Shown one piece after another: positions 33,059 to 59,099 of a stretch of DNA of 64,000 nt (within the stretch, counting starts at the first letter, position 1; every line of letters starts with the position of its first letter). Both the position numbers and the translations under genes were made by a program. This stretch comes from Brucella haematophila (GTDB taxonomy: Bacteria; Pseudomonadota; Alphaproteobacteria; Rhizobiales; Rhizobiaceae), in contig NZ_VCPE01000015.1 in assembly GCF_005938105.1 (NCBI RefSeq), forward strand, positions 1-64,000, in the 5' to 3' direction. The notes beneath the pieces are model-generated. The model did not search any database. It worked only from the letters and a program-made list of their open reading frames with translations, and had not been told where the DNA came from.

Positions 33059-33088
33059 CACAGCCCTTCTTTCGTCACGACGCAGAAG

Positions 33089-33119
33089 AAGCTAATTGTT
33101 AGAGTGCGCTCTAAGTCAA
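33089..33119 (-). promoter_or_regulatory. MerR-type promoter with 19-bp spacer and dyad
   Basis: On the minus strand TTGACT (33114-33119) and TAGCTT (33089-33094) are separated by 19 bases, and the dyad TTAGAG-N4-CTCTAA (33099-33114) fills the spacer. This is the classical layout for activation by MerR proteins through DNA untwisting. Confidence 0.75.
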
Positions 33120-33262
33120 TAGGCTTTCGACAAAATCGTGCACGTCAGAAGTTCAGCTCGATCTCAGCAGCAACATCGCACCTAAAGTTGATCTCACTCG
33201 ATTAGGTCAGGCCGCTTTAAACTTCGTTTCACGCCGTTTCCGTCACACATTCGATATCAACC

Positions 33263-34249
33263 TCAAGAATTCACGAATTCTTCGGCGACTGAACGAATGC
33301 CCGCACCGTCCAATTTGTAATGCGCATAGAGATGGGTCGGTGGCGCAATGAGGCTGTATTCGTCATAGATTCCGTGACGTTTGAGTTTCACACCAGCGCC
33401 TTCATCGGCCAGAACCTCGGCCACAGCCGCACCAAGCCCGCCCAGCACATTGTGCTCTTCGACAGTCATCATTTTCTTCGTGCGCGAAGCAGCAGAAAGT
33501 ATAGCTTCCCGGTCGAGGGGCTTGATCGAAGCCATATCGATCACCCCGACAGAGCGGCCATTGGCATTCATCGCGCGGGCAGTTTCGAGCGCACCGTGAA
33601 CCGCCATACCACAGGCAATAATCGTCAGCTCTTCCCCTTGGATATGCTCATGAGCCTTACCGAAAACGAAGGGCGTATCCTTGTCGTAAACAACTGGATC
33701 GCGACCCCGGCCAATACGGAAATAGATCGGCCGATCATGATTGGCCGAGGCGCGAATGGCTGCTTCTAGCTGAGCACCGTCGGCTGGCGAGACGACGGAG
33801 AGATCGGCGATCGAGCGCATCGTTGCTATGTCTTCGGTCGCATGGTGTGACGTCCCGTAGAACCCGAGTGAAATGCCAGTGTGATGGCCGATCATTCGCA
33901 CCGGCTGCGCGGAATAAGCAACGTCCATGCGGATCTGCTCGCAGGCAAGCAATGCGATGAAAGAAGCAAAAGTCGCAATGAAAGGCGTGACACCGCAGGT
34001 CGCAATACCAGCTGCCGTACTCACCATATTCTGCTCGGATATGCCGAAGGAAATGTATCGATCAGGGTAGACTGACGCGAACCGATTGAGACCGTTCGAA
34101 TATTGCAGATCGGCAGAACCCGCGACGACATTATGCCCGGCTTTGACGAGGTCGATAAGGCCATTCGAGAGATGATCAAGGCCGGGATTTGCTGCGTTCA
34201 AGCCGCGATACTGCCAGGAACTTGGGGAAAGCGATTGGCTCATGGTCAA
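33263..34249 (-). CDS. Transketolase, C-terminal subunit
   Basis: A 328-residue protein corresponding to the Pyr and C-terminal domains of transketolase. The catalytic glutamate lies in ISFGISEQNMVSTAAGIA near residue 73-90, and the C-terminal domain carries VGVIDMASIKPLD and MMTVEEHNVLGGLGAAVAE. It overlaps the N-terminal subunit gene by four bases (ATGA), so the two chains form one split enzyme that moves a two-carbon ketol unit using thiamine diphosphate. It is the last gene of the nine-gene operon beginning with the 2-oxoacid dehydrogenase. Confidence 0.92.
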   Translation of the reverse strand: MTMSQSLSPSSWQYRGLNAANPGLDHLSNGLIDLVKAGHNVVAGSADLQYSNGLNRFASVYPDRYISFGISEQNMVSTAAGIATCGVTPFIATFASFIALLACEQIRMDVAYSAQPVRMIGHHTGISLGFYGTSHHATEDIATMRSIADLSVVSPADGAQLEAAIRASANHDRPIYFRIGRGRDPVVYDKDTPFVFGKAHEHIQGEELTIIACGMAVHGALETARAMNANGRSVGVIDMASIKPLDREAILSAASRTKKMMTVEEHNVLGGLGAAVAEVLADEGAGVKLKRHGIYDEYSLIAPPTHLYAHYKLDGAGIRSVAEEFVNS

Positions 34250-35133
34250 ATCTCCCGCGACTTGATTTCAACGATAGCGGCTTCGGCATCCGAGGGATCG
34301 AGATAGCCGAGATGCCAGCCCGGCTCGGTTTCCATATAGGAGACGCCCTTGCCCTTGACGGTCCTGGCTATGATGCAGCAAGGAACCTGACGTTGGTCGT
34401 CGGCGCGCACGCGCCGTAGTAGCTCGGTCGTTGCCGCCACGTCATGTCCATCCACGACATGCACCTCCCAACCGAAAGCACGCCATTTCTCGTCCAACGG
34501 CTCGACATTCATGACATCATCGACCTTGCCGTCGAGTTGGTACCCATTACGGTCGATGATGGCGATCAGATTACGAGCCTTGTGCTGAGCTGCACTCATA
34601 GCAGCTTCCCACACCTGGCCTTCCTGCATTTCCCCGTCACCCATCATGCAGAAGACCTTATAGTCTTCGCCCGTCCAGCGTTGAGCCAAGACCATACCAA
34701 GCCCATTGGAAAGCGCATGACCGATTGAGCCAGACGAAAAGTCCACGCCTGGAACCTTGCGCATGTCGGGATGGTCACCGAGCGGGCTGCCAAGACGGGT
34801 ATAGTTGTCGAGCCAGTCCTTCGGAAAAAAGTCGAGATCCGCATAGATCGGAAACAGGCCAACTGCTGCGTGACCCTTGCCAATTGTGAAACGATCACGC
34901 GACACCCAATTCGGTTCGTCCCGTCGAATACGCATGACATCATAGTAAAGTGCAGCGAATATCTCCGCCGCAGAGAATACTGACGTGTAGTGTCCCGTTT
35001 TCGCGATTTCGATGAGGCGAACAGTTTCGAGACGAATAAACTGTGCACGCTCCTTGAGCATTGCAACGGTTTCATCCGACGGTTCGAAACTGTTCGGTTT
35101 AGGCACTCCGACCGCGCCATTCGTCGAAACCAT
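34246..35133 (-). CDS. Transketolase, N-terminal subunit
   Basis: A 295-residue PP domain of a split transketolase. The thiamine diphosphate motif GDGEMQEGQVWEAAMSAAQHKARNLIAIIDRNG is near residue 150-180, and GHAAVGLFPIYADL and GSLGHALSNG-like SGSIGHALSNGLG are present. The frame is open for 53 more codons upstream, but the ATG at 35133 has GGAG and begins at the expected domain border. Split transketolases in other bacteria act in dedicated sugar pathways such as apulose or erythrose use; the acceptor here is unknown. Confidence 0.92.
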   Translation of the reverse strand: MVSTNGAVGVPKPNSFEPSDETVAMLKERAQFIRLETVRLIEIAKTGHYTSVFSAAEIFAALYYDVMRIRRDEPNWVSRDRFTIGKGHAAVGLFPIYADLDFFPKDWLDNYTRLGSPLGDHPDMRKVPGVDFSSGSIGHALSNGLGMVLAQRWTGEDYKVFCMMGDGEMQEGQVWEAAMSAAQHKARNLIAIIDRNGYQLDGKVDDVMNVEPLDEKWRAFGWEVHVVDGHDVAATTELLRRVRADDQRQVPCCIIARTVKGKGVSYMETEPGWHLGYLDPSDAEAAIVEIKSREI

Positions 35134-35173
35134 TTTAAACTCCTGATTTGAATGGTGGAAGTTGAGCAGACAC

Positions 35174-36262
35174 CTACGAGAAAGTGCGTCCGTCACTATC
35201 GTTCCAACCGATAAGAATTGCATCACCAGCCACCGGTCTGGTGGTGAAATCCAGAAGTGGCTTGCGAACCACCATTGTTTGCCCGCGCCCAATGTCCACC
35301 AGCGCGCGCAAATGGTCGCCGAGGTACGTCGTGTCCAAGATTGTTCCCTTGCACTGATTCGAGCGGCTCTGCGCCGCTGTGCCGATCACAAGATGTTCGG
35401 GCCTGACAGCTATTTTCACAGGCTTGCCTGTATCGGCAAAAGTGGAGGACAGATCCGCCCGCACTGTTTGGCCGCAATCCAAGCGGATGGTTCCATAGCC
35501 GCGCTCGTCTACACCTTCCGAATGCCCGGAGATGATATTGTTCTCACCAATAAAGCCAGCCACGAAGACATTTGCGGGTTGCTCATAAAGCTCCTGCGGG
35601 CTGGCGATCTGCGTGACCGAACCGCGCTCGAAAATGGCAATGCGATCGGACATGGCAAGTGCTTCAGTCTGATCGTGCGTGACATAAACCATTGTGACAC
35701 CCAAATCCCGATGGATTTGCTTGATCTCATATTGCATATGTTCGCGCAGTGTCTTGTCGAGTGCACCAAGCGGTTCGTCCATCAGAACCAGGCTCGGCTC
35801 AAAGACAAGCGCGCGAGCAAGTGCAACACGCTGCTGCTGCCCACCCGAAAGCTCACTCGGGCGACGGTTTTGCATTCCCTCCAGACGAACCATCTCGATG
35901 GCCTTGTCCACCTTCACTTGTATTTCCCGCTTGCTCATCTTTCGCATGCGCAACGGATAAGCCAGATTCTGCGCTACGGTCATGTTGGGAAACAAAGCAT
36001 AGTTCTGAAAGACAACGCCGATGCCCCGGCGGTGCGGCGGCAAGTGTTCAATCGGCTTTCCCGTGACGAGAATATGACCTCGGGTAGGCGTTTCGAAACC
36101 GGCAAGCATCATCAGCGTTGTGGTTTTACCAGAACCTGAACCACCGAGAAGGGTTAGAAACTCGCCCTGCCTTACCGACAGGTTCAGATTCTCGATAACA
36201 ACGGTGCGTCCATCATAGGTTTTCTGCACGCCCACGAATTCAACGATTTGTCCGGTTTCCAT
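35174..36262 (-). CDS. ABC transporter ATP-binding protein, PotA type
   Basis: A 362-residue ATPase starting at the ATG behind AAAGG; the open frame runs 95 codons further upstream into the aminotransferase gene but that part is not conserved. Walker A GGSGSGKTTTLMML, Q loop VVFQNYALFPNMTVAQNLAYP, signature LSGGQQQRVALARAL, Walker B LVLMDEPLGALDKTLRE and the switch histidine VTHDQ are complete. A TOBE regulatory domain follows. It energises the PotB/PotC-like permeases of the same operon. Confidence 0.93.
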   Translation of the reverse strand: METGQIVEFVGVQKTYDGRTVVIENLNLSVRQGEFLTLLGGSGSGKTTTLMMLAGFETPTRGHILVTGKPIEHLPPHRRGIGVVFQNYALFPNMTVAQNLAYPLRMRKMSKREIQVKVDKAIEMVRLEGMQNRRPSELSGGQQQRVALARALVFEPSLVLMDEPLGALDKTLREHMQYEIKQIHRDLGVTMVYVTHDQTEALAMSDRIAIFERGSVTQIASPQELYEQPANVFVAGFIGENNIISGHSEGVDERGYGTIRLDCGQTVRADLSSTFADTGKPVKIAVRPEHLVIGTAAQSRSNQCKGTILDTTYLGDHLRALVDIGRGQTMVVRKPLLDFTTRPVAGDAILIGWNDSDGRTFS

Positions 36263-36333
36263 GAATGGCCTTTCGTGCGGCTGGTATGCGTTTCCGGGTT
36301 TCCCTTGTGACCGGGAAGCACTTTTTGCCGGGA

Positions 36334-37257
36334 TCAATCCCTGTACGGCACTTCGGTCGCGAGCCAGCCGTCTTCCTGTTTCTGCCAGTAAATATCGTGC
36401 AATCGACGTGTTAACGGGCCGGGCGTGCCATCGCCGACTGTCTTGCCGTCGATTGTGGTCACAGGCATGATGCCACCAGCTGTACTGGTCATGAAGATTT
36501 CGTCGGCACCGAGAAGCTCTCCGATGGCTACTGGACGAACCTCGCAACGCAGCTGCAATTGCTCGCAGAGTTCCAGAACCGTACGTCGGGTCATGCCTTC
36601 GAAAACGCCACTCTCTGGTGTGCAGAGGACATTATCTTTGACAGCAAATACGTTAAAGCCCGCGCCTTCGGTGATATTGCCATCCCCATCACGCAGAACG
36701 GCCACGAAAGCATCTCTGTCATAGGCCTCAAAGATGCCCATGGTGAGGTCGAGCCAATGGAAGTTCTTGATGCGTGGGTCCACCGCCTGCGGTGCAATAC
36801 GATGAACAGAACTCACAACCATGGGAACGCCTTGCCTACGCTGATCATCATTTGCAATCCAGACAAAGGGCGTAGCGAAAGCATAAAAGCGCTGGGTACA
36901 AAGACGCGGATCACGGCTGCCAGCCGGCGGCATTCCCCGTGTGCATGTCATCTGCACATAGGAGTCACGCAAACCGCTCAAGCTGACACATTTGATGAGG
37001 ATTTCGGCGATTTGCTCATGCGTATAGGGCAGCGACATGCGAAGCCCGCGCATGGATGCGAAGAACCGTTCGATATGATCGTCAAGACGGAAGAAACGTC
37101 CCTTCCAGACATGCGCAACGTCATAAGTCGCGTCAGAACGCACGAAGCCGCGATCAAGAATTGGAATGCTGGCCTCCGCGACTGGCATATAGCGCCCGTC
37201 AATGAATGCAACGCCTGCCTGCGGGTTAGGAATGTGAACATCGGGTTCTTTGGTCAT
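36334..37257 (-). CDS. Class IV aminotransferase (D-amino acid / (R)-amine / branched-chain type)
   Basis: A 307-residue fold-type IV PLP enzyme, started at the ATG behind AAAGG. The PLP lysine is in RIKNFHWLDL near residue 155, the cofactor glutamate in ITEGAGFNVFAVKD near 190, and the phosphate-binding GMTRRTVLEL and STAGGIMPVT near 215 and 255. Family members transaminate D-amino acids, branched-chain amino acids or (R)-amines; the pattern does not decide between them. Placed in an operon with an amine-type importer and a 2-oxoacid dehydrogenase, it is likely to convert the imported amino compound to a keto acid. Confidence 0.9.
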   Translation of the reverse strand: MTKEPDVHIPNPQAGVAFIDGRYMPVAEASIPILDRGFVRSDATYDVAHVWKGRFFRLDDHIERFFASMRGLRMSLPYTHEQIAEILIKCVSLSGLRDSYVQMTCTRGMPPAGSRDPRLCTQRFYAFATPFVWIANDDQRRQGVPMVVSSVHRIAPQAVDPRIKNFHWLDLTMGIFEAYDRDAFVAVLRDGDGNITEGAGFNVFAVKDNVLCTPESGVFEGMTRRTVLELCEQLQLRCEVRPVAIGELLGADEIFMTSTAGGIMPVTTIDGKTVGDGTPGPLTRRLHDIYWQKQEDGWLATEVPYRD

Positions 37258-37258
37258 G

Positions 37259-38071
37259 TTATGCCTTTCCGAGATTTCGTGCATTGCGGTTCACGAGGAA
37301 CAGCGCGGCGATGAGGCTGAGGGTGGCGACGATCATGAGGAACGTTGCCATGGCAAGAATGGACGGTTCGATATTGTCGCGAAGCCCTTCGAACATTTTC
37401 AAGGGAAGGGTTCGCTGGCCGGGGCCTGCAAGGAAAAGGGTTACGACGACTTCATCGAACGAAGTCATAAACGCGAAGAGCGCTCCAGAGATAATGCCCG
37501 GCGCAATGACCGGAACAAGAACAGTCATGAAGCCTTTGAAAGGAGATGCGCCAAGACTTGCCGCAGCGCGGAGCAGGCCCATGTCAAAACCTTGCAGCGT
37601 GGCCGTAACGGTGATCAGCACGAAAGGCGCGGACAGGACTGTATGGGCGATGATAACGCCGGGCATGCTGGCGGTCAGACCGAACTTCGCCATCAGAAAG
37701 TACATCCCAAGTCCGCTGATAACAGGCGGGACAATCATTGGCGCGATGAGAAAGCCAAGGATCGCGGTTGGCATGGGCAAGTCACGACGGGCAAACGCAT
37801 AAGCTGCAAGTGTACCGAGAATGGTTGCAGCAACCGTCGACACCGAGCCGATGATCAGACTGTTCTTGAGTGATGAAAGCCATGGGCCATTCGCAAACAC
37901 ACGCTCATACCACTGCAACGAAACACCCGGCAGCGGATAGGAGAGAAAGCTGCCCGAACTGAAGGACAGCGGGACGATAGCGATGAGTGGAACGACCAGA
38001 AAAAGTATCATAGCCACGCCAAACCCATAGTAGAGCGTCCGTATGATCATTGCTTGACGATGATATGGCAT
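37259..38071 (-). CDS. ABC transporter permease, PotC type
   Basis: A 270-residue permease starting at the ATG behind GAGG, nine bases after the preceding gene; the frame stays open 150 codons further but overlaps the PotB-like gene. Six helices are visible and the EAA loop is LLRAAASLGASPFKGFMTVLVPVIAPG near residue 165. Its stop and the aminotransferase start are one base apart. It forms the transmembrane pair with the PotB-like protein. Confidence 0.92.
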   Translation of the reverse strand: MPYHRQAMIIRTLYYGFGVAMILFLVVPLIAIVPLSFSSGSFLSYPLPGVSLQWYERVFANGPWLSSLKNSLIIGSVSTVAATILGTLAAYAFARRDLPMPTAILGFLIAPMIVPPVISGLGMYFLMAKFGLTASMPGVIIAHTVLSAPFVLITVTATLQGFDMGLLRAAASLGASPFKGFMTVLVPVIAPGIISGALFAFMTSFDEVVVTLFLAGPGQRTLPLKMFEGLRDNIEPSILAMATFLMIVATLSLIAALFLVNRNARNLGKA

Positions 38072-38079
38072 TGGCGACC

Positions 38080-39345
38080 TCACTTTAGTCCCGCAAGCTG
38101 ACGCACACCCACTGTACGCGCGGCGAGCGCATAGACCGCAACGGTGCAAAGCAACAGCACAATCCCAAGTGCCGACGCCATGCCCCAGTTGATGGTGGTG
38201 TTGGCGAAGAAGGCGATGAAATAGCCGAGCATCTGGTCGCGCGCGCTGGCGACCAGCGATGGCGTAATATAATAGCCCGCAGTCACGATGAAGGTCAGCA
38301 ACACACCCGCTCCGACACCCGGCAACGTCATCGGCAAATAAACATTGAGAAAGCCGCGAACCGGGTGAGCCCCAAGCGAGGCCGACGCCCGCATGAAATG
38401 CGGAGGGATGCCCTTCATCGTGGAATAGAGAGGCAGGACCATGAAGGGCAGCATCATGTGGATCATGACGATATAAAGCCCTGTGGTGTTGAAGATCAGC
38501 TCCAGCGGCTGCCGGATCAGACCAAGCCAACCAAAAAGGGAATTAACAAGCCCCTCGCGCTGAAGAAGGACGATCCAGGCAGAGGTGCGCGCCAATAGCG
38601 ATGTCCAGAACGGCAGCATCACGGCGATGATAAGCGCGATTGACAGAAATCGCGGTGCGCTCACCATCAGATTGGCCAGCGGATAACCAAGCAGAGCACA
38701 AACAAGCGTGACGATAGCTGCGGTCTTGAGCGTGCGAAAGAGGATATCGACATAGGTTCGTTGCTCTTCAGGTGCCTGTACCACCTTTCCACTGTCATCA
38801 ATAGCAAGATCGACTGCCGCAAGCATGTAGTAAGGCGTGAAAGCAGGCGACGCACGTTTCATCGCGTGCCAGTAGGCTGGCTCTTCCCACCTCTTGTCGA
38901 TTCCGGCCAGAAAGCGGCGTGCCGCACCATCCGCAGTGATATCGTCTGGTAATGTACGCAACTTGCGAACGGTGCTGGTGAGAAGCGTTCGGTAACCGCT
39001 CTCCTCGTAGTTCAAGCGCCGTGCGGCCTCGGCAACGAGATTGCGCGGAGCGCTGGCAATTTCCTGTACGAAAGTCGTGAAAACAACATCCGGCGGCAAC
39101 TCCGCTGAATCGTTCGTCGTCCAGCGGGACAATTCAGCCACCGTTTCTGGTAGAGCCTGCGTCAGTTCGGCATTATCAATTGCCTTGTAGAGCATCATGC
39201 CGATCGGCAGCATGAATGTCAGCAGCACATAGAATAGAAGTGGCGCCACAAGCATTAAGGAAACGACGCGCCGACGTCTGCCGGCTCGCCCCCATTCCCG
39301 GCGCGTTGCCTTGGTCGCGGCTGTGTCTTCATCGATCAAGGTCAT
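38080..39345 (-). CDS. ABC transporter permease, PotB type with large periplasmic insert
   Basis: A 421-residue permease, far longer than the usual 280-310 residues. After the first helix (about residues 25-48) there is an insert of roughly 130 hydrophilic residues (about 50-185) before the normal five-helix core, which includes the EAA loop FMRASASLGAHPVRGFLNVYLPMTLPG near 330. The start is the second ATG, ten bases after AGGAGG; the first ATG (39354) is one base from it. The insert should lie outside the membrane and may contact the binding protein. Confidence 0.9.
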   Translation of the reverse strand: MTLIDEDTAATKATRREWGRAGRRRRVVSLMLVAPLLFYVLLTFMLPIGMMLYKAIDNAELTQALPETVAELSRWTTNDSAELPPDVVFTTFVQEIASAPRNLVAEAARRLNYEESGYRTLLTSTVRKLRTLPDDITADGAARRFLAGIDKRWEEPAYWHAMKRASPAFTPYYMLAAVDLAIDDSGKVVQAPEEQRTYVDILFRTLKTAAIVTLVCALLGYPLANLMVSAPRFLSIALIIAVMLPFWTSLLARTSAWIVLLQREGLVNSLFGWLGLIRQPLELIFNTTGLYIVMIHMMLPFMVLPLYSTMKGIPPHFMRASASLGAHPVRGFLNVYLPMTLPGVGAGVLLTFIVTAGYYITPSLVASARDQMLGYFIAFFANTTINWGMASALGIVLLLCTVAVYALAARTVGVRQLAGLK

Positions 39346-39415
39346 CGGAACCATGCCTCCTTAAACCATGCCGGCGGGAAATCGGCCGGCATGGTCCTAA
39401 CATTATCCAGTCGGC

Positions 39416-40456
39416 TTACTGGGCAACCCAGCTGGCAAAGCGTTCCGCCAGTTCCTCACCATGATCAATCCAGAATTCCGAGTTGAAACGCACCGCGTTT
39501 TTGAGATTGTCCGGAGCAGATGGGAGTTTTGCCAACCGGTCCGCAGGAAGGGCTTCCATGGCTTTGACGTTGCTGACACCGTAAGCGATATTGTTGGCAA
39601 AGGTTGTCTGCGGCTCTTTTGACATCATGAATTCGACGAAAGCCGTTGATTCATCCAGGTTTGGAGTTCCCTTCATGATGGCCCAGAATTCGGTTGAGTT
39701 GATCTGCCCGTCCCAGACGATAGCAAAATCTTTCCCTTCCTTCTGAGCATTGTCGACGCGACCGTTATAGGCTGTTGTCATGACGACATCGCCTGAAGAG
39801 AGCCATTCCTGCGGCTGGGCTCCACTCTCCCACCACTGGATATGTGGCTTCAGTTGATCGAGCTTGGCGAAGGCTCTGTCCTGACCTTCCTTCGTGGCAA
39901 TCACGCTATAGACTTCCGATGGCGGCACGCCGTCTGCCATCAAGGCTACTTCCATGGTCAGCTTTGCAGTCTTGCGCAAACCGCGCTTGCCCGGCCACTT
40001 TTCCACGTTCCAGAAATCGGCCCAGTTCTTCGGTCCATCCGTCAGCTTGGCCTTGTCATAGGTCAGAATATTGGCCCAGCTCAGAGCACCAACAGCGCAT
40101 TCCTTGAACTGGCTGGGATCAATCTCGTCGGCATGTGGCTTTTTCGACCAGTCGATATTTTCGAGAAGCCCCTGCTCGCACGCCATGGTGACTTCATCGT
40201 CCTCCATCTGCATAACGTCCCAGGTGACATTTCCCGCGTCAACCATTGCCTTCTGCTTGGCTAGACCGCCATTGGTCGTGTCTTCGAGCACCTTGATGCC
40301 CTTTTCCTTGGCATAAGGCGTGAAATAGGCTTCCCGAAACGCGTCTTGAATTGCCCCACCAAAGCCAACAACGGTCAGATCGCGAGCATGGGCGCCAGAA
40401 AGGCATGCCGCAGTCGCGATACCGGTTGCCAGAAGCATCTTCCCATATTTATGCAT
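39416..40456 (-). CDS. ABC transporter substrate-binding protein, PotD type
   Basis: A 346-residue periplasmic binding protein with a signal peptide ending at GAHA near residue 24. The mature start DLTVVGFGGAIQDAFREAYFTPYAKEKGIKVLED is typical of the polyamine/iron/thiamine binding-protein group that handles small amines and amino-acid-like compounds. WWESGAQPQEWLSSGDVVMTTAYNGR near 210 is a conserved binding region. It lies between the E2 gene and the PotB-like gene, so uptake and breakdown of the substrate are encoded in one transcript. Confidence 0.92.
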   Translation of the reverse strand: MHKYGKMLLATGIATAACLSGAHARDLTVVGFGGAIQDAFREAYFTPYAKEKGIKVLEDTTNGGLAKQKAMVDAGNVTWDVMQMEDDEVTMACEQGLLENIDWSKKPHADEIDPSQFKECAVGALSWANILTYDKAKLTDGPKNWADFWNVEKWPGKRGLRKTAKLTMEVALMADGVPPSEVYSVIATKEGQDRAFAKLDQLKPHIQWWESGAQPQEWLSSGDVVMTTAYNGRVDNAQKEGKDFAIVWDGQINSTEFWAIMKGTPNLDESTAFVEFMMSKEPQTTFANNIAYGVSNVKAMEALPADRLAKLPSAPDNLKNAVRFNSEFWIDHGEELAERFASWVAQ

Positions 40457-40525
40457 GTTCCTGTTCCTCTCTCTTTTATGATCATTGCTCGCCCTCTGTT
40501 TTTTCTTGTGGCGAGGTATTTCGCT

Positions 40526-41800
40526 TCAGACGAGAATTTGCATCGGGTTCTGAAGCAGTTCCTTGAAACTGGACAACCATTGCGCGCCCAAAGCGCCGTC
40601 TATTGCCCGATGATCGAGCGAAAGCGTCACGCGCATGACGCGGGCGTCAACGGCTATGCGCTCCCGAGACACAATCCGTTCTTCAATCGCGCCGACTGCG
40701 AGAATTGCTGCTTGCGGTGGATTGATAATGGCGGCGAAGTCGCTCACCCCATGCATGCCGAGGTTGCTGATGGTGAACGAACCACCGCGATATTCATCCG
40801 GCTTCAAACTGCCATTGCGGGCCCTGAGTGCCAGATCGGAAATCTCATCCGAAATTACGGATAGCGACTTTTTGCCAGCGTCCTTGAGCACCGGGGTGAT
40901 CAACCCGCCATCTGTCGCCACTGCAACGCAAATGTCCGTTCGCTGTAGACTGAGAAGAGCGTCCTCAGTCCAGATAACATTGCAGGCAGGAACGCGAGCG
41001 AATGCAGCGGCGGCGGCCTTGACCAGAAAATCCGTAACCGAAAGCCGCGCTTCTGCCGGCCGCGTAGCATTGATCTGCTTTCGAAGTTCAAGCAGAGCAT
41101 CGACAACGATTTCGGCGTTTAGATAAAAATGTGGAATCTTTTGTTTGGACGCACTCAAACGCTGTGCAATCGTCCGCCGCATAGCGGAATGCGGTATGGC
41201 AACATGCGGGATCTCCACATCGTGCGATCGGAGAACAGATACATCGTCATTAACCACCGCCGTCTGCTGGGTAACGGGATTGGGAGTAGAAGAGGCCGAG
41301 CGTATCGTTGTACCGAAAGCCTCAACATCGCCGCGAAGAATACGCCCGCGCGGTCCTGTCCCATTGATGTCAGAGAGCGAGATACCCTTTTCGCCTGCAA
41401 GCCTGCGCGCAAGCGGGCTGGCGAATATGCGCCGGTTCAAATCCCCGCGTGGCATTTCAACAGACGGTACTGCCGTTGCATCGGAGCCTACTGCTTCCCG
41501 TTGAACAGGTGTCGTAGGAATGGAGGTTGAAAGCAGTTGTGCCACATCGGCCTCAGTCTCGCCTTCATTCGCGAGAATGCCGATCGGCGTCTCAACTGTT
41601 ACAGTCGCTCCATCGCCGTGCAATATGCGGGCAACGCGTCCTGACTTGGGGCTAGGAATTTCGATGACGGCCTTGTCCGTCTCGATTTCGGCAAAGGCCT
41701 CACCTGAGACAACAGCGTCTCCCTCGACTTTCAACCACCGGGCAATGGTGCCGTCGCGCGCATTGGCCACAACGGACGGCATGACAAGAAACTCAGGCAT
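40526..41800 (-). CDS. 2-oxoacid dehydrogenase E2 (dihydrolipoamide acyltransferase)
   Basis: A 424-residue E2. The N-terminal lipoyl domain has the modified lysine in EIETDKAVIEIPSP near residue 45; the peripheral subunit-binding domain is FASPLARRLAGEKGISLSDINGTGPRGRI near 135-165; the catalytic domain ends with the histidine and aspartate motif DHRAIDGALGAQW near 395. Its ATG overlaps the end of the E1 gene by eight bases. No E3 gene is in the operon, so the complex must borrow the housekeeping dihydrolipoamide dehydrogenase. It would pass an acyl group from the keto acid to CoA. Confidence 0.93.
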   Translation of the reverse strand: MPEFLVMPSVVANARDGTIARWLKVEGDAVVSGEAFAEIETDKAVIEIPSPKSGRVARILHGDGATVTVETPIGILANEGETEADVAQLLSTSIPTTPVQREAVGSDATAVPSVEMPRGDLNRRIFASPLARRLAGEKGISLSDINGTGPRGRILRGDVEAFGTTIRSASSTPNPVTQQTAVVNDDVSVLRSHDVEIPHVAIPHSAMRRTIAQRLSASKQKIPHFYLNAEIVVDALLELRKQINATRPAEARLSVTDFLVKAAAAAFARVPACNVIWTEDALLSLQRTDICVAVATDGGLITPVLKDAGKKSLSVISDEISDLALRARNGSLKPDEYRGGSFTISNLGMHGVSDFAAIINPPQAAILAVGAIEERIVSRERIAVDARVMRVTLSLDHRAIDGALGAQWLSSFKELLQNPMQILV

Positions 41801-43967
41801 GGTGTCGCTCCGGCAAGGTTGCCAATGCAGCCGCGATCTCTTCTCGCCCGGCATAGGCGGCGCGCTCGAGAACCTTGGAGATCGACGGAGAAGCTTCGCG
41901 TCCGCTGACCCGCTCGACGGGATGATCAAGCCAGTCGAACAACCGACGCTGGATTTCATCGGAAAGCCAAGCGCCGTAAGAGGAACCGCGTGGTCCCTGC
42001 TCGACGATCATGACCATGTTGGTTTTCTTCACGCTTTCAGTGATAGTTTCCCAATCGATGCTGGCACGGTCGAGGCACCGCAGGTCGATAACCTCGGCAT
42101 CCAGGCTTGCCTCCTCCACGGCATCAAGCGTTGCCTGCACCATAGCGGAGTAGGTCAGTATCGTCGCGGCAGACCCGCTTCGGCGCACCGACGCTTTGCC
42201 AAAAGGAATGAAGTAATCAAGATCGCCGACTGGCGCCGGACCCATCGTTTGATAAAGATCGACATGCTCTATCACCAGAACAGGGTCATTCGACGCCAGC
42301 GCTGTGTTCATCAGCCCGACATAATCGAACGGCGTGGATGGCGCGATAATTCTCCAGCCCGGCGAGGTGGCGAAAACGCCTGCGGGGTCCATGGAATGCT
42401 GGGAACCATAGCCTGTGCCAATCGCAATCTTCGTGCGCAGCACAAGAGGGACGGCCATGTCACCACCGAACATGTGACGCGCCTTGCCGACCTGATTGAA
42501 CACCTGATCAGCCGCAACCCACATGAAGTCCGGATACATGAACTCGACAATCGGACGATACCGCCCATCCATCGCAAGACCACCGCCCAAGCCCATGAAC
42601 GCATTCTCGCTGATCGGCGTTCCAAGAATGCGATCAGGATACTTCGCCTTGAGACCACGCGTGGCGCCGTTGGTTCCACCTTTCAAGCGGTGAATATCCT
42701 CGCCCAGAATGACGATACCGTCGTCCTTCTCCATGCGCCGGTCCAGCACATCAGCAATGACGTCGACAAATTTGCGTTGTTCGATCCCGCCACTGAAATT
42801 CGATTTCTCGACATATTGCAGACCCGACAGTTCGGATCCATCGCTACGAATACCGACATCACAGAAGTCCGGCTTCGGCCACAGCCCCGTTTTGATAAGG
42901 CGACGATTGTCCACGCGATCTGTCAGTTCCTCTGCCACATCTTGCATGATCTGTTTACAACGCGCTCTCAACGCATCGATACCGGTCTGATCAACAAGGC
43001 CTCGTGCCATCATTTCTCGTGCTACCCGATCCAACGGATCCTTCGCCCGCCAGCTTTCCTCTTCCTCTTTCGTGCGATAGCCAAAGGCAGAGCCCGGGAA
43101 CGAACCGTTCTGATGGAAGTAGCGGTAAACCTCGGCCTCGATGATGGTCGGACCATTTCCGGCGCGCATATGTGCAAGCGCCTCTTTCATTGCGAGATTG
43201 ACCGCGAGCGGATCCATCCCGTCAACGTGCCAGGATGGAATGGCGAAGGCCTGTCCGCGCGCAGCCAAGCGCGTTTCTGCCGTTGATTCTTCAAGGCTGG
43301 TCGCGACCGCATAGCGGTTGTTCTCGATGAAGAAGCATAGAGGCAGACGCCAGGCCGCAGCGAGGTTCATCGTCTCCAATACCGAGCCGATATTCACCGC
43401 GCCGTCGCCAAAGTAACTTACCGCAACTGCATCCGAACCCGACTGCTTGTGTGCGAAAGCAGCACCTGCCGCCAGCGGCACGCCACCGCCAACAATGGCA
43501 TTGGTGCCCAGCGCGCCTGCGGCCTGCCATCGCAGGTGCATAGACCCACCGCGACCACCACAGAACCCTTCGGCAAGCCCCATGATTTCGGCCAGAGAGC
43601 GGCGAAGAAGGGAACGGATTGAACCGTCAAATGCCATGCCGAACGGCAGACCATCGGGCGCGACAAAGTTCAAAGCCTTTGCGAGAAATTGATGGTGACC
43701 CCGGTGAGAGCCGTTAATCTGATCCTCTGCCCGGAGCGGCAAGATCGAGCCAACCGCGCCGCCCTCTTGACCAATGGATGAATGTGCCGGGCCATGAACC
43801 AGCCCTTCATTTGCAAGTTCGAGGACTGCTTCTTCGAATGCACGGATGAGATGAAGCGATGAGAGCATCGTTTCCAACCCGGCAGCGCCTTCCGCATCCC
43901 AATCCTTCTTGGTCGTGCCAAACTCTAGCCAGCAGGTGGAACTCGATACGGTCTTCGTTTGCGGCAT
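41793..43967 (-). CDS. Fused 2-oxoacid dehydrogenase E1 alpha-beta
   Basis: About 724 residues from the ATG behind GAGGAAGAA; the frame is open to an ATG at 44093 with a weaker site, which would add 42 residues. The alpha part shows HSSIGQEGGAVG and the thiamine diphosphate motif GDGAVNIGSVLETMNLAAAWRLPLCFFIENN; the beta part begins near residue 375 and has ILGEDIHRLKGG, GTPISENAFMGLGGGLAMDG and RYRPIVEFMYPDF. The alpha and beta chains are usually separate in acetoin and branched-chain keto acid dehydrogenases, so this is a natural fusion. It decarboxylates a 2-oxo acid of unknown identity. Confidence 0.92.
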   Translation of the reverse strand: MPQTKTVSSSTCWLEFGTTKKDWDAEGAAGLETMLSSLHLIRAFEEAVLELANEGLVHGPAHSSIGQEGGAVGSILPLRAEDQINGSHRGHHQFLAKALNFVAPDGLPFGMAFDGSIRSLLRRSLAEIMGLAEGFCGGRGGSMHLRWQAAGALGTNAIVGGGVPLAAGAAFAHKQSGSDAVAVSYFGDGAVNIGSVLETMNLAAAWRLPLCFFIENNRYAVATSLEESTAETRLAARGQAFAIPSWHVDGMDPLAVNLAMKEALAHMRAGNGPTIIEAEVYRYFHQNGSFPGSAFGYRTKEEEESWRAKDPLDRVAREMMARGLVDQTGIDALRARCKQIMQDVAEELTDRVDNRRLIKTGLWPKPDFCDVGIRSDGSELSGLQYVEKSNFSGGIEQRKFVDVIADVLDRRMEKDDGIVILGEDIHRLKGGTNGATRGLKAKYPDRILGTPISENAFMGLGGGLAMDGRYRPIVEFMYPDFMWVAADQVFNQVGKARHMFGGDMAVPLVLRTKIAIGTGYGSQHSMDPAGVFATSPGWRIIAPSTPFDYVGLMNTALASNDPVLVIEHVDLYQTMGPAPVGDLDYFIPFGKASVRRSGSAATILTYSAMVQATLDAVEEASLDAEVIDLRCLDRASIDWETITESVKKTNMVMIVEQGPRGSSYGAWLSDEIQRRLFDWLDHPVERVSGREASPSISKVLERAAYAGREEIAAALATLPERHHA

Positions 43968-44147
43968 TTCTTCCTCTACAGACAAAGTTCGGCCGTCACC
44001 TGCGAGCGTCTCGCAAGCGGCAGACAGTGGCCAGACATTACGCGCGATACCGGCGGTTTTGATGCTCTGAACAAGCCAGAGCGGCTCCCACATTTATTCT
44101 CGTTTTGTTACTGCTAGGCTTTCATTTTCTTTGCGCGGTGTCAATCA

Positions 44148-44159
44148 ATTGTATCCAAT
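44148..44159. promoter_or_regulatory. GntR-type operator copy 1
   Basis: ATTGTATCCAAT lies in the divergent promoter region of the E1 and VOC genes. It is the inverted, one-base variant of the 12-bp motif at 44231, 57369 and 57431. Confidence 0.6.
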
Positions 44160-44230
44160 GAATCTCAAATTACAGAAAAATTTGCATAATTAGGCTCGAC
44201 AAAGGCATTCTCCCAATGAATTATAGCTCT

Positions 44231-44242
44231 ATTGGATACATT
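44231..44242. promoter_or_regulatory. GntR-type operator copy 2
   Basis: ATTGGATACATT lies 17 bases before the VOC gene start and is identical to the copy at 57369-57380. Confidence 0.65.
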
Positions 44243-44259
44243 GACGTTAAGGTGAGTGA

Positions 44260-44835
44260 ATGTCGAAAAGTAGCTACAGCCATCAGGACAAGGCATTTGC
44301 ACGTGACATCGGCTTACCTGGCCTGCGAGGCACAGAGCACATCGGTTTCACTGTCCCCAATCTGGCGGAAGCGGTGGATTTCTTCGTAAACGTCATTGGC
44401 TGCGAGCCATTTTATGAGCTTGGCCCTTTCTCGTCTGACGGGGATTGGATGCAGACAGCTCTCAATGTGCATCCGCGCGCGGTCATGAAGAAGCTACAGT
44501 TCTTGCGTTGCGGGAATGGCTCGAACTTCGAGATATTTGAGTATTCTTCACCGGACCAAAACCCGGTCCAGCCGCGCAATAGCGACGTCGGGGGACATCA
44601 CCTTGCCTTCTATGTCGACGATATCGATTCGGCTGTGCAGTATTTGCGCATGCATGATGTCCGCATTCTCGGTGAGCCTGTTGTGCGGAAAGATGGTCCG
44701 AGTGCAGGGCAAACCTGGGTTTACTTCCTGACACCGTGGGGAATGCAGCTTGAACTTGTATCCTTTCCGAATGGCAAGGCCTATGAAAAAGGTCTGACGC
44801 GCCGCCTTTGGAGTCCGGTTGGTTCTACTTCCTGA
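44260..44835 (+). CDS. VOC family protein (glyoxalase/dioxygenase fold)
   Basis: A 191-residue protein of the vicinal oxygen chelate superfamily with two beta-alpha-beta-beta-beta modules. Probable metal ligands are the histidine in TEHIGFTVPN near residue 27, the histidines in GGHHLAFYVDD near 110 and the glutamate in MQLELVSFP near 165. The superfamily includes glyoxalases, epimerases and extradiol dioxygenases, so the reaction cannot be named. It is divergent from the E1-E2 operon, followed by the GntR gene, and preceded by an operator shared with the hydantoinase operon, so it probably works in that pathway. Confidence 0.85.
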   Translation: MSKSSYSHQDKAFARDIGLPGLRGTEHIGFTVPNLAEAVDFFVNVIGCEPFYELGPFSSDGDWMQTALNVHPRAVMKKLQFLRCGNGSNFEIFEYSSPDQNPVQPRNSDVGGHHLAFYVDDIDSAVQYLRMHDVRILGEPVVRKDGPSAGQTWVYFLTPWGMQLELVSFPNGKAYEKGLTRRLWSPVGSTS

Positions 44836-44901
44836 TCGCCTCTTCATCCGACGGTAAAAGTAGTAGACGTGCGCCGAACATTGTCTGCTATATCTGGGCG
44901 T

Positions 44902-44920
44902 CTCTGATGCACTGTCAGAG
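44902..44920. repeat. Inverted repeat before the GntR gene
   Basis: CTCTGA-N7-TCAGAG lies 18 bases upstream of the GntR start and could be an autoregulatory site or part of the promoter. Confidence 0.35.
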
Positions 44921-44938
44921 CATAGAAGGGGCCATTTT

Positions 44939-45595
44939 ATGAATGAAACCACGTTGGGTCTTCGAGTAACGGGTGAAATTCGTCAAAAGATATTGAGCGG
45001 CGAGTTCGCGCCCGGACTGCGCATCCGGCAAGAGGAACTTGCCGCACAATTCGGCACCAGCCGCGTGCCCGTTCGGGAAGCTCTCAAGCAGCTCGAAAGC
45101 GAAGGCCTCGTCGTCATCGTTCCCAACAGTGGTGTCTGGATTGCGCGTGTCGATATCAATGAGTGCGTAGAGATGTGGAAAATCCGCGAGCGGATCGAAC
45201 CGCTTGCGCTTGGCGAAAGCCTCCCCCACTTGACCGATGAGGATATTCTCGGCCTTGAGGAAATCTGTCGCGCAATAGACGCCACGACGGATGTGGAAGA
45301 ATTCCTGCGGCTTGATCGTCAATTTCACCTCGCGAGCTATCGTGCGACGGCCATGCCTACGCTCATCCCCATGATCGAGCGCATCTGGAATACCACCCAG
45401 CATTATCGGCGCGCTTACACAATGCTTTTAGGCCGGGAGCGGTTCTGGATCATACAATGCGAGCACGGGCTTCTGATGGAAGCCATCAAACGGAGAGATG
45501 TCGAGGACGCCGAAAGAGCCCTTTACAGCCACATTCGCCGCACCCGCATGGAACTGGAACGGAACCGCACGGCCTTTACTGACATTTCTTTCTAG
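44939..45595 (+). CDS. GntR family regulator, FCD (FadR) subfamily
   Basis: A 218-residue regulator with an N-terminal winged helix (IRQEELAAQFGTSRVPVREALKQLESEGLVVIVPNSGVWIA, about residues 25-65) and an FCD ligand domain with the metal-site region RLDRQFHLASYRA near 120-133. It follows the VOC gene and is the nearest regulator to the E1/VOC promoter region. The 12-bp motif found twice there and twice upstream of the ribose-type/hydantoinase operon is of the size and symmetry bound by FCD regulators, so this protein is the best candidate for both. Confidence 0.9.
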   Translation: MNETTLGLRVTGEIRQKILSGEFAPGLRIRQEELAAQFGTSRVPVREALKQLESEGLVVIVPNSGVWIARVDINECVEMWKIRERIEPLALGESLPHLTDEDILGLEEICRAIDATTDVEEFLRLDRQFHLASYRATAMPTLIPMIERIWNTTQHYRRAYTMLLGRERFWIIQCEHGLLMEAIKRRDVEDAERALYSHIRRTRMELERNRTAFTDISF

Positions 45596-45812
45596 ATGCC
45601 GCTGATGTCGGTCGATCTTTTCATACGCTCGTTCTGTTGACCGACAGCGATCACTGCAACATCGGCTTCGTGCCCGCTCACATCGGCAATTAGATTATTG
45701 CTGAGGCTACTCGTGAAATGACCACCGCAGGTCGTCTTTTTGGCCACACGGACATAACGAGCTTCCACCCAGTAAACCAATTGACGTCAATGACGCTTCG
45801 TGCAATTAATTC

Positions 45813-45824: not shown

Positions 45825-45846
45825 ACAACAAACATCGGTTCTTCTC

Positions 45847-47037
45847 ATGTATGATTATTGTCTGGTTGGCGGCGGCATTGTCGGCCTTGCCACGGCCCTT
45901 ACCATTGTCCGGCAGAAACCTTCAGCCCGCATTCTGGTGCTGGAGAAGGAAGAAGCCGTTGCGATGCATCAGACCGGCCATAATAGCGGTGTGATTCATG
46001 CTGGCATCTATTACCAGCCCGGAAGCTTCAAGGCAGAGCTTTGCCGCGCTGGCGAGCGCATGACCAAGCAGTTCTGCGACGAAAACAACATTGCCTATCG
46101 TGTTCCGGGCAAGCTTGTTGTTGCGACAAACGAAGTCGAAGTGCAGCGCCTCGCCGCCCTTGAAACGAATGCGGCTGCGAACGGCATTACCTGCCGCCGC
46201 CTCAGCGGCGGTGAATTGCACGAATTCGAACCCGCAGTGACCGGGCTTGGTGCCTTGCTGGTCGAGCAGAGCGGCATTGTCGACTATCGTGCGGTCTGCC
46301 GCGCCATGGCCGATCTCATACGCGCTGCTGGTGGCGATATCGAGTTCAATGTCAGTGTCGACCGCATTGAAGAACGCAGCGACAGTGTGCGGGTCCATGC
46401 GGACGGCAAGGTATGGGAAAGCAGGCAGGTCATCGCCTGTGCCGGATTACAGGCCGACCGCCTTGCCCGCCGATCCGGTGTCGATGTCGACTTCCAGATC
46501 GTGCCGTTCCGTGGCGAATATTATGCTTTGCGCCCCGAATTGAATAAACTCGTCGAACGCATGATTTATCCGGTGCCGGACCCTTCAATGCCGTTTCTCG
46601 GTATTCACCTGACGCCAATGATCGACGGCAGCCTGACCGTCGGACCCAATGCCGTTCTGGGCTTGTCACGCGAAGGCTATCCAAAATTCTCGGCCAATTT
46701 GCGTGATATGGCGACCTATGCAGCCTTTCCGGGTTTCTGGAAGGTGATCACCGCCCATCTTTCGTCCGGCCTGGAAGAGATGAAGGACAGCCTGTTCAAG
46801 AAGAGCTATCTGGAAAAGTGCCGGAAATATTGCCCTTCCCTTCAGGAAAGCGACCTCCGGCCTTACCGCGCAGGAATAAGGGCACAAGCCGTCTCGAGAG
46901 ACGGCAAGCTTATTCACGACTTCAAGTTCCACCAGACCAAACGTGTGCTGCATGTGTGCAATGCGCCGTCTCCCGCAGCCACGTCTGCCATGCCTATCGG
47001 AAATCTGATCTTTCAACGCTTGCAAACAGGCAATTGA
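45847..47037 (+). CDS. lhgO: L-2-hydroxyglutarate oxidase family flavoprotein
   Basis: A 396-residue DAO-fold FAD enzyme with the dinucleotide motif VGGGIVGLATAL at residues 7-18 and conserved blocks HQTGHNSGVIHAGIYYQPGSFKAELCRAG, VEQSGIVDYRAVCRAMA and GPNAVLGLSREGY, which fit LhgO/YgaF. LhgO oxidises L-2-hydroxyglutarate to 2-oxoglutarate and feeds electrons to the membrane quinone pool; in E. coli it lies in csiD-lhgO-gabDTP for glutarate breakdown. Here it is followed after seven bases by a succinate-semialdehyde dehydrogenase gene, matching that grouping. Confidence 0.92.
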   Translation: MYDYCLVGGGIVGLATALTIVRQKPSARILVLEKEEAVAMHQTGHNSGVIHAGIYYQPGSFKAELCRAGERMTKQFCDENNIAYRVPGKLVVATNEVEVQRLAALETNAAANGITCRRLSGGELHEFEPAVTGLGALLVEQSGIVDYRAVCRAMADLIRAAGGDIEFNVSVDRIEERSDSVRVHADGKVWESRQVIACAGLQADRLARRSGVDVDFQIVPFRGEYYALRPELNKLVERMIYPVPDPSMPFLGIHLTPMIDGSLTVGPNAVLGLSREGYPKFSANLRDMATYAAFPGFWKVITAHLSSGLEEMKDSLFKKSYLEKCRKYCPSLQESDLRPYRAGIRAQAVSRDGKLIHDFKFHQTKRVLHVCNAPSPAATSAMPIGNLIFQRLQTGN

Positions 47038-47044
47038 GTACGTC

Positions 47045-50443: not shown

Positions 50444-50459
50444 CACTGAACCTTTCTGA

Positions 50460-57368: not shown

Positions 57369-57380
57369 ATTGGATACATT
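57369..57380. promoter_or_regulatory. GntR-type operator copy 3
   Basis: ATTGGATACATT lies 87 bases upstream of the binding-protein start and is identical to the copy at 44231-44242. Confidence 0.65.
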
Positions 57381-57430: not shown

Positions 57431-57442
57431 AATGTATCCAAT
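57431..57442. promoter_or_regulatory. GntR-type operator copy 4
   Basis: AATGTATCCAAT is the exact reverse complement of the copy at 57369-57380, 50 bases away in facing orientation. Confidence 0.65.
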
Positions 57443-59050: not shown

Positions 59051-59099
59051 CTACAAATATGATAAAAGACCATATTGAATGTCAGTGGAGAGCGCACGC

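What the first reader, a model, noticed from the sequence alone, without database searches (positions are those of the whole stretch)
33263..44835. Operon joining fused E1, E2, class IV aminotransferase, split transketolase and an amine-type ABC importer
Nine minus-strand genes from 43967 to 33263 have gaps of at most 71 bases and several overlaps, so they look like one transcript. The enzymes suggest import of an amino compound, transamination to a keto acid, oxidative decarboxylation by E1-E2, and a two-carbon transfer by the split transketolase, with a VOC protein on the divergent side. I know of no described pathway with this set. Families are recognised; the pathway and substrate are inference.
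Basis: partly seen in the sequence, partly recalled or inferred. Interest (0 to 1): 0.75.

Follow-up and report, generated by a model that had tools for sequence, protein, structure and literature searches.

The report
Amine-to-ketol breakdown gene cluster
A 26-kilobase set of bacterial genes looks built to import an unknown chiral amine, strip off its nitrogen and split the remaining carbon chain, and it may show what a group of industrially used enzymes does in nature.

Summary
The nine-gene minus-strand run (43967-33263) is real but only half of the system. A second module (48647-59774: caprolactamase-like HyuAB, ribose-type importer, class III transaminase, second GntR) shares a rare operator-like motif, ATTGGATACA: 7 exact sites in 5.5 Mb, 4 of them as two inverted pairs here. 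The gene set recurs in relatives, reshuffled in two. The class IV aminotransferase is of the (R)-selective amine-transaminase family; the module-2 one is 70% identical to chain 5ghf (recalled as an (S)-selective enzyme). The fused E1 is a distinct clade (HQ[NS]G loop). Elsewhere it mostly sits with two short-chain dehydrogenases, which are absent from 14 of 15 loci with this transaminase. E1-E2 and the split transketolase replace each other beside it, so they look like alternatives, not successive steps. Best reading: a vicinal amino alcohol (possibly an amide or lactam) is transaminated to an alpha-hydroxyketone, which thiamine enzymes cleave to acyl-CoA plus aldehyde. The Shinella operon carries a transaminase 64% identical to FumI, which does this transamination on hydrolysed fumonisin. 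Substrate unproven; a keto-acid route is not excluded.

The parts
33263..34243 (-). tkC: C-terminal half of split transketolase
   Evidence: Pfam PF02779 + PF02780
34246..35133 (-). tkN: N-terminal half of split transketolase
   Evidence: Pfam PF00456; nearest PDB entry is a split-chain transketolase N half, 6yak, 1.7e-73
35174..36262 (-). ABC ATPase, PotA subfamily
   Evidence: TIGR01187 373.3 bits, cut-off 355.6
36334..37257 (-). AT4: class IV aminotransferase of the (R)-selective amine-transaminase family
   Evidence: PF01063; best PDB match 1.7e-87, first match outside the leading group 9e-57; lysine motif DPRIKNFHW aligned
37259..38071 (-). ABC permease 2
   Evidence: PF00528; PotC/PotI-like
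38080..39354 (-). ABC permease 1
   Evidence: PotH/PotB-like C-terminal part; PF00528 19.5 bits, below its cut-off 26.4
39416..40456 (-). solute-binding protein
   Evidence: SBP_bac_8; PDB neighbours include agropine, polyamine and mannopine binding proteins and a GABA sensor
40526..41800 (-). E2: lipoyl, E3-binding and acyltransferase domains
   Evidence: PF00364, PF02817, PF00198
41793..43967 (-). E1: fused alpha/beta thiamine-dependent component
   Evidence: PF00676 + PF02779 + PF02780; clade-specific HQ[NS]G loop
44150..44159 (-). operator-like site (ATTGGATACA)
44231..44240 (+). operator-like site (ATTGGATACA)
44260..44835 (+). VOC-fold protein with four conserved candidate metal ligands H27, E91, H114, E165; proposed ketol epimerase/isomerase (inference)
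   Evidence: PF13669/PF00903; the four residues invariant in 6 of 6 aligned sequences; that these are the VOC ligand positions is recalled
44939..45595 (+). GntR1: GntR-family regulator, proposed to bind ATTGGATACA (inference)
   Evidence: NCBIfam GntR-type matches, below cut-off; orthologue and motif co-occur in 6 of 80 E1 loci
45847..47037 (+). LhgO-like FAD oxidase
   Evidence: NF008726 580.3 bits, cut-off 299; kept in G027, G015, G002, G016, not seen in the held Shinella and G032 stretches
47045..48493 (+). aldehyde dehydrogenase, succinate-semialdehyde-dehydrogenase-like
   Evidence: TIGR01780 471.6 bits, below cut-off 646.35
48647..50446 (-). HyuB, caprolactamase-beta-like
   Evidence: PF02538; NF050157 276.1 bits, cut-off 1000
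50460..52520 (-). HyuA, caprolactamase-alpha-like
   Evidence: PF01968/PF05378; NF050156 551 bits, cut-off 1000
52599..53588 (-). ribose-type ABC permease
   Evidence: PF02653
53585..54595 (-). ribose-type ABC permease
   Evidence: PF02653
54592..56103 (-). ribose-type ABC ATPase (two ABC stretches)
   Evidence: PF00005; RbsA/AraG-like, below cut-offs
56188..57282 (-). periplasmic binding protein, Peripla_BP_4/TorT-like
57369..57378 (+). operator-like site (ATTGGATACA)
57433..57442 (-). operator-like site (ATTGGATACA)
57507..58880 (-). AT3S: class III omega-transaminase
   Evidence: 315 of 452 aligned residues identical (69.7%) to 5ghf; PRK06105 subfamily 783.5 bits, cut-off 517
59079..59774 (+). 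GntR2: GntR/FCD regulator
   Evidence: PF00392 + PF07729; 76-79% orthologue beside AT3S in G016 and G032

Best explanation
33263-59774 is one co-regulated catabolic cluster for a chiral amine, most likely a vicinal amino alcohol (an amine next to a hydroxyl) that may arrive as an amide or lactam. Two ABC importers bring it in and the caprolactamase-like HyuAB opens the amide or lactam. Two transaminases of opposite expected stereopreference, AT3S for (S) and AT4 for (R), remove the amine and give an alpha-hydroxyketone. The thiamine-dependent fused E1 with its lipoyl E2 (and an E3 from elsewhere in the genome, not searched for) cleaves the bond between carbonyl and carbinol, as acetoin dehydrogenase does, giving acyl-CoA and an aldehyde. 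The split transketolase is an alternative cleaver for ketols with a terminal CH2OH. The VOC protein would epimerise or isomerise the ketol and the aldehyde dehydrogenase would oxidise the released aldehyde. GntR1 controls both halves through ATTGGATACA. Shown from sequence: gene content, families, linkage, the motif and its co-occurrence with GntR1, and module exchange. Inferred: substrate class, order of reactions, stereopreferences, the VOC and HyuAB roles, and GntR1 binding.
For: Regulon: the core TTGGATACA occurs 4 times in the window against 0.37 expected, no shuffle of 100 above 2; 7 exact 10-mer sites in 5.5 Mb, 4 of them here; among 80 E1 loci a GntR1 orthologue (>=40%) is in 7 and the motif in 6, all 6 among those 7 and 57-283 bases before the E1 match (hypergeometric 2.3e-8, not corrected for kinship). 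One pathway: the set is syntenic in G027, G015, G002 and reshuffled in G016 and G032. In the genus the 6 of 35 genomes with AT4 all carry E1 in the same cluster; E1 at 65% or more is in 8 of 35. Functional-group swap: of 80 E1 loci SDRb is in 71 and SDRa in 68; AT4 is in 3, none of which has SDRa or SDRb. TPP-enzyme swap. Ketol chemistry: the Shinella pollutisoli operon carries a transaminase 64.0% identical (263 of 411) to FumI, which turns 2-amino-3-hydroxy hydrolysed fumonisin into the 2-ketone (PMC2933618, passages); three relatives at 61-74% degraded the same substrate (PMC9858248, passages). An (R)-transaminase was coupled with acetohydroxyacid synthase to make norpseudoephedrine, a vicinal amino alcohol (PMC7228992, passages). 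E1's loop differs from the E1s I take to be PDH and BKD in its own genome. An SSADH beside E1 in L104 passes the SSADH subfamily cut-off (712.9 against 646.35), though not the stricter NADP-SSADH one (805.8 against 828).
Against: No substrate or activity is known for any of these proteins. E1's loop also lacks the GHS/GHA of the two AcoC-linked E1s of this genome, so it is not a plain acetoin dehydrogenase; it groups with one of them (93) while the other falls with BKD (95). The best models for E1 and E2 are pyruvate-dehydrogenase ones, below cut-off. P. inhibens L104 carries AT4 and both SDRs. G154 has AT4 and a FumI-like transaminase but no TPP enzyme recognised in 18 kb. No E3 gene was recognised in the cluster. 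The window genome has no FumI-like gene at E<=1e-120. An SSADH-like gene (>=50%) was seen in only 17 of 80 E1 loci. The exact motif is absent from the AT4 loci L104, L110, L111, L170 and L171; G016 has a stray copy inside HyuB, G032 none before the second importer, and G027 and Shinella only one exact site before E1.
Confidence: 0.5

Rival explanations
1. One reading: a D-amino acid or other 2-amino acid is imported, deaminated to a 2-oxo acid, and oxidatively decarboxylated by E1-E2; the transketolase uses a hydroxypyruvate-like product.
For: E1 and E2 score best against pyruvate-dehydrogenase models. AT4 also matches D-amino-acid and branched-chain transaminase models, below cut-off. Transketolase can use hydroxypyruvate as donor (general knowledge).
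Against: AT4 is nearest to (R)-amine transaminases. E1 lacks the GHS loop of the PDH and BKD copies. E1's usual partners are SDRs and a VOC protein. E1-E2 and the transketolase replace each other.
Confidence: 0.22
2. Separate neighbouring pathways: a polyamine or opine importer, an E1-E2 ketol pathway and a transketolase sugar pathway merely lie together.
For: The transketolase pair is optional: a 5' remnant in O. quorumnocens L117, none in G016 at E<=1e-80, none in the held stretch of L025. It also lies with sugar or polyol genes in G024, G028 and G030, although in G030 an E1 copy is about 19 kb away. E1 occurs without AT4 in 77 of 80 loci.
Against: The same set is reassembled in a different order in G016 and G032, and motif sites stand before the split transcription units. 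AT4 with E1 or the transketolase recurs in Mesorhizobium, Variovorax, Phaeobacter, Salipiger and Shinella.
Confidence: 0.15
3. The amine becomes a simple ketone that HyuAB, as an acetone- or acetophenone-carboxylase-like enzyme, carboxylates.
For: Acetophenone-carboxylase models match HyuA (NF042975 283.8 bits) and HyuB (134.3 bits), far below cut-off; amine transaminases make ketones.
Against: Caprolactamase models score higher (551 and 276.1 bits). AT4 loci L026, L105 and L111 carry HDAC-type or amidase genes (L105 also has an annotated hydantoinase gene), which points to amide hydrolysis. It explains neither E1-E2 nor the transketolase.
Confidence: 0.08

Closest known systems
Fumonisin catabolism (fumI, Sphingopyxis sp. 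MTA144)
   Same: Transamination of a 2-amino-3-hydroxy compound to a 2-ketone; the Shinella version of this operon carries a 64%-identical FumI homologue.
   Different: The window genome has no FumI-like gene; it has AT4 and AT3S, two ABC importers, HyuAB and E1-E2. That the fum cluster holds an acetolactate-synthase-like enzyme is recalled, not looked up; one FumI-like locus here (L159) carries such a TPP enzyme.
Acetoin dehydrogenase complex (acoABC)
   Same: Proposed chemistry: thiamine- and lipoyl-dependent cleavage of an alpha-hydroxyketone to acyl-CoA and aldehyde.
   Different: Fused E1 with its own loop signature; E2 not of the AcoC type; beside transaminases; no E3 recognised in the cluster.
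(R)-selective amine transaminases (e.g. 4ce5, 3wwh; source organisms recalled)
   Same: AT4 matches 4ce5 at 2.3e-86 and 3wwh at 5.9e-74; the lysine motif is aligned.
   Different: Known ones were found by enrichment, homology and motif searches (PMC7228992, passages); here a gene context suggests a role.
Split transketolase (6yak)
   Same: Separate N and C halves; tkN matches 6yak at 1.7e-73.
   Different: In one run with a transaminase and an amine-type importer; substrate unknown.
SDR-E1-VOC-E2-LpdA-LIV importer clusters of Achromobacter, Pseudomonas, Herbaspirillum (unnamed)
   Same: 69-72% identical fused E1 with E2 and usually a VOC protein.
   Different: Two dehydrogenases in place of the transaminases and a branched-chain-type importer; one paper search found none on them.

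Membership tests
(R)-selective amine transaminase | nearest characterised sequences are (R)-amine transaminases | tested here: met
   leading PDB matches at 1.7e-87 to about 1e-67, next 9e-57; several of the leading ones are deposited under branched-chain or D-amino-acid aminotransferase names
(R)-selective amine transaminase | PLP lysine in the aligned motif | tested here: met
   DPRIKNFHW aligns with DPTVKNLQW in four of four alignments shown; that this is the PLP lysine is recalled
(R)-selective amine transaminase | published active-site key motifs | not tested
   motif set not looked up
(R)-selective amine transaminase | activity on (R)-amines | not testable with these tools
   needs enzyme assay
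2-oxo acid dehydrogenase (PDH/BKD) E1 | GHS loop as in this genome's own PDH- and BKD-type E1 | tested here: not met
   GHS in both against HQNG here; alignments to human PDH E1 alpha. L001 and L003 were assigned as PDH and BKD by me from sequence and neighbours
2-oxo acid dehydrogenase (PDH/BKD) E1 | passes the curated family cut-off | tested here: not met
   253 bits against 393.85, TIGR03182
Acetoin dehydrogenase complex | AcoC-type E2 (NF011457) | tested here: not met
   window E2 70.5 bits, cut-off 307; two AcoC genes over cut-off elsewhere in the genome
Acetoin dehydrogenase complex | E1 groups with AcoC-linked E1 | tested here: inconclusive
   fused clade beside one AcoC-linked E1 (93), the other groups with BKD (95)
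Acetoin dehydrogenase complex | acyloin cleavage activity | not testable with these tools
   needs enzyme assay
Transketolase (split) | N-half and C-half domains in two adjacent genes | tested here: met
   PF00456; PF02779 + PF02780
Polyamine importer (PotABCD) | PotA subfamily ATPase | tested here: met
   TIGR01187 373.3 over 355.6
Polyamine importer (PotABCD) | PotD/PotF binding protein over cut-off | tested here: not met
   41.7 against 582 and 28.4 against 636
Caprolactamase (CapAB) | CapA/CapB models over cut-off | tested here: not met
   551 and 276.1 against 1000 each
Fumonisin fum cluster | FumI-type transaminase | tested here: not met
   none in the window genome at E<=1e-120; present in the Shinella version
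Fumonisin fum cluster | carboxylesterase FumD | not tested
   not searched for

The most novel reading that the evidence does not exclude
An undescribed pathway in which stereo-complementary (S)- and (R)-transaminases turn both epimers of a vicinal amino alcohol into one alpha-hydroxyketone, which a new clade of fused, lipoyl-coupled thiamine enzyme (HQ[NS]G type), or a split transketolase, cleaves to acyl-CoA and aldehyde. It would give (R)-selective amine transaminases a natural role.
Probability: 0.42. Interest if true: 0.75.

Novelty: new variant of a known kind. Interest (0 to 1): 0.6.

Why it matters
(R)-selective amine transaminases are used in drug synthesis (PMC7228992, passages), and the papers I could search assign no role to this gene set. 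A conserved, testable regulon that pairs one with a second transaminase and a C-C cleaving thiamine complex gives a concrete hypothesis for what they do. The fused E1 clade with its own loop signature is found in many Proteobacteria and some actinobacteria, and I found no assigned substrate for it, so one assay set could annotate many genomes.

Tried and rejected
Serial keto-acid/transketolase scheme: set aside because E1-E2 and the transketolase replace each other. Polyamine import proper: the SBP falls far below PotD/PotF cut-offs. Fumonisin itself: no FumI-like gene in the window genome; FumD was not searched for. Ephedrine catabolism: one literature search gave nothing useful. Promoter and terminator scan: at shuffle level. 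The plus-strand ORF 57483-58946 looked like a gene but has no Pfam match and is antisense to AT3S. L158's E1-like protein is a 2-oxoglutarate dehydrogenase, taken as a chance neighbour. Literature: ten searches listed no description of this gene set; the library holds open-licence papers only, and one search matched mostly unrelated papers. Passages only were read, of PMC9858248, PMC10204369, PMC2933618, PMC12029284 and PMC7228992.

Selection of loci: L024, L025, L026 came through E1; L110 and L111 through AT4. Taking only AT4 searches, top hits other than the own genome: the five best plasmid records (58-96%) all have E1 or the transketolase nearby, and so do 2 of the 3 best order-level genomes (G328 and G095, not G154); weaker AT4 hits were not examined. 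Several of the 80 E1 loci are short contigs, so absences there are weak. Of 11 FumI-like loci in the class sample I recognised a transketolase pair or an acetolactate-synthase-like enzyme in 3 (L156, L159, L166); in the other 8 my reference set showed none apart from the housekeeping enzyme of L158. L113 (no AT4), L114 (AT4-like only 44%) and two AT4-less E1 loci were in the table but not in the count of 15.

Full report
What is there. The window is part of contig C7 of a 5.5-Mb genome. Its nearest named match is one plasmid record of Ochrobactrum quorumnocens (93.1% over 86% of window 33000-48600), so it belongs to the Brucella/Ochrobactrum group. The nine minus-strand genes of the finding are present with gaps of at most 71 bases: fused E1, E2, binding protein, two permeases, class IV aminotransferase (AT4), ABC ATPase, and the two halves of a split transketolase. 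VOC and a GntR-family regulator (GntR1) are divergent, followed by an LhgO-like oxidase and an aldehyde dehydrogenase.

The cluster is larger than reported. ATTGGATACA, in either orientation, is found at four places in the window, as two inverted pairs: between E1 and VOC (44150-44159, 44231-44240) and between AT3S and the binding-protein gene of a second module (57369-57378, 57433-57442). Its 9-base core occurs 4 times against 0.37 expected; the largest count in 100 shuffles was 2. In the whole genome the 10-mer has 7 exact sites, 4 of them here; the reversed control pattern has 1. I chose the motif from the first pair, so only the second pair is an independent test. The second module is HyuB, HyuA, two ribose-type permeases, ATPase and binding protein, the class III transaminase AT3S, and GntR2 divergent.

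The set is a unit. It is syntenic in G027, G015 (its transketolase reduced to a remnant) and G002, and carries largely the same genes in another order in G016 and G032. In G016 motif sites stand between VOC and AT4, before E1 and between AT3S and the binding protein, with one stray copy inside HyuB; in G032 between VOC and AT4 and before E1, but none before the binding protein. G027 and the two Shinella genomes keep only one exact site before E1, and the AT4 loci L104, L110, L111, L170 and L171 have none. In 80 E1 loci from named genomes a GntR1 orthologue (>=40%) is in 7 and the motif in 6; all 6 are among the 7, with the site 57-283 bases before the E1 match (hypergeometric 2.3e-8, not corrected for kinship such as L024/L025 or L083/L084). 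L026 has the orthologue without the exact motif. L083 and L084 have E1 with SDRs and no AT4, which suggests that GntR1 senses an intermediate common to both variants (inference).

The enzymes. AT4's leading PDB matches are (R)-amine transaminases (1.7e-87; next group 9e-57). AT3S is 315/452 = 69.7% identical to chain 5ghf; the O. anthropi enzyme is described as (S)-selective (PMC12029284 and PMC7228992, passages), and that 5ghf is that enzyme is recalled. The operon in Shinella pollutisoli (L024) contains a class III transaminase 263/411 = 64.0% identical to FumI (6hbs); S. lacus (L025) has a 90% orthologue in the same place. FumI converts hydrolysed fumonisin, a 2-amino-3-hydroxy compound, to its 2-ketone (PMC2933618, passages); three relatives with 61-74% identity degraded the same substrate (PMC9858248, passages). 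AT4-type and class III transaminases stand together in the window (AT4 + AT3S), in Shinella (AT4 + FumI-like), in Mesorhizobium and Variovorax (AT4 + AT3S-like), in G154 (AT4 + FumI-like) and, with a weaker AT4 relative, in Shinella HZN7.

E1 is a separate clade. In 107 sequences (>=40% identity, identical ones removed) the loop reads HQ[NS]G...GS.FGYR with most of these positions at 97% or more, where the E1s I take to be this genome's PDH and BKD have GHS and its two AcoC-linked E1s have GHS and GHA. A tree of 21 sequences puts the fused clade beside one AcoC-linked E1 (93), while the other pairs with BKD (95), so it does not settle the chemistry. Context is more telling: of the 80 loci, E2 is in 74, SDRb in 71, SDRa in 68, a VOC protein in 61, LpdA in 56, a LIV-type binding protein in 50, a shikimate-dehydrogenase-like gene in 47 and an SSADH-like gene (>=50%) in 17. 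AT4 is in 3, and these 3 have neither SDRa nor SDRb; of the other 77, only 4 have neither. A dehydrogenase in one variant and a transaminase in the other fit entry into one ketone intermediate from a diol or an amino alcohol. P. inhibens L104 is an exception, carrying both.

E1-E2 and transketolase are alternatives. In 15 loci with AT4 at 58-100%: E1 only in 7 (G015, G016, L025, G095, L026, L104, L105), transketolase only in 2 (L110, L111), both in 5 (window, G027, G002, G032, L024), neither in 1 (G154). O. quorumnocens keeps a truncated tkN start. An amide-hydrolysing gene (HyuA, HDAC-type or amidase) is in 12 of the 15, all but L024, L025 and G154. The window's HyuAB is nearest to caprolactamase (551 and 276.1 bits, cut-offs 1000).

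Mechanism (inference from here). The intermediate that both a transketolase and an acetoin-dehydrogenase-like complex can split is an alpha-hydroxyketone; it is what these transaminases would make from a vicinal amino alcohol. An (R)-transaminase has been coupled with acetohydroxyacid synthase to make norpseudoephedrine (PMC7228992, passage), which is this chemistry in reverse. Cleavage would give acyl-CoA and an aldehyde, for which an aldehyde dehydrogenase stands by; in L104 it passes the SSADH subfamily cut-off (712.9 against 646.35) though not the NADP-SSADH one (805.8 against 828), hinting at succinic semialdehyde in that variant. The window's own aldehyde dehydrogenase is below the SSADH cut-off. 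The VOC protein has four invariant candidate ligands and might epimerise the ketol. Uptake of an amide or lactam is inferred from HyuAB.

What speaks against it. No activity is known; E1/E2 models point to PDH (below cut-off); P. inhibens and G154 do not fit neatly; loci related by descent make the counts less independent than they look; a 2-oxo acid route remains possible (0.22).

Verdict. The families are known; the combination, the two-module regulon and the exchange of entry and cleavage enzymes were not found in what I could search.

Noticed in passing
   Followed up: yes
80 E1 loci L024-L103: A widespread unnamed cluster SDRa / shikDH-like / LIV importer / SDRb / fused E1 / VOC / E2 / LpdA, with SSADH-like genes in 17 of 80, in Achromobacter, Pseudomonas, Herbaspirillum, Acinetobacter and others (the last without the LIV importer in the held stretch); substrate unknown.
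   Followed up: partly
L117 13746-13928: Truncated 5' remnant of tkN in O. quorumnocens, where the window has an intact transketolase pair.
   Followed up: partly
L118, L186 (G002): Many split hits along the cluster, suggesting frameshifts or a low-quality assembly (85% complete, 7% contaminated).
   Followed up: no
L159 (G765:C177): Locus with a FumI-like transaminase, several SDRs and an acetolactate-synthase-like TPP enzyme.
   Followed up: partly
L114 (Shinella sp. HZN7 plasmid pShin-08), L123, L124: Paralogous fused E1 (46-47%) in loci that also hold an AcoC-type E2 (L114 over cut-off) and a peptide-type importer; L114 adds a FumI-like and a class IV transaminase.
   Followed up: partly
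window 20828-25720: Another SBP / two permeases / TOBE ATPase importer with an SDR, on the minus strand.
   Followed up: no
window 28717-31041: Cobalamin-independent methionine synthase gene.
   Followed up: no
G000:C1:508678-513478 and 411282-416019: Two AcoC-linked acetoin-dehydrogenase-like operons in the same genome; one lies by an ORF that looks like a ribose-type permease (my reading, not scanned).
   Followed up: partly
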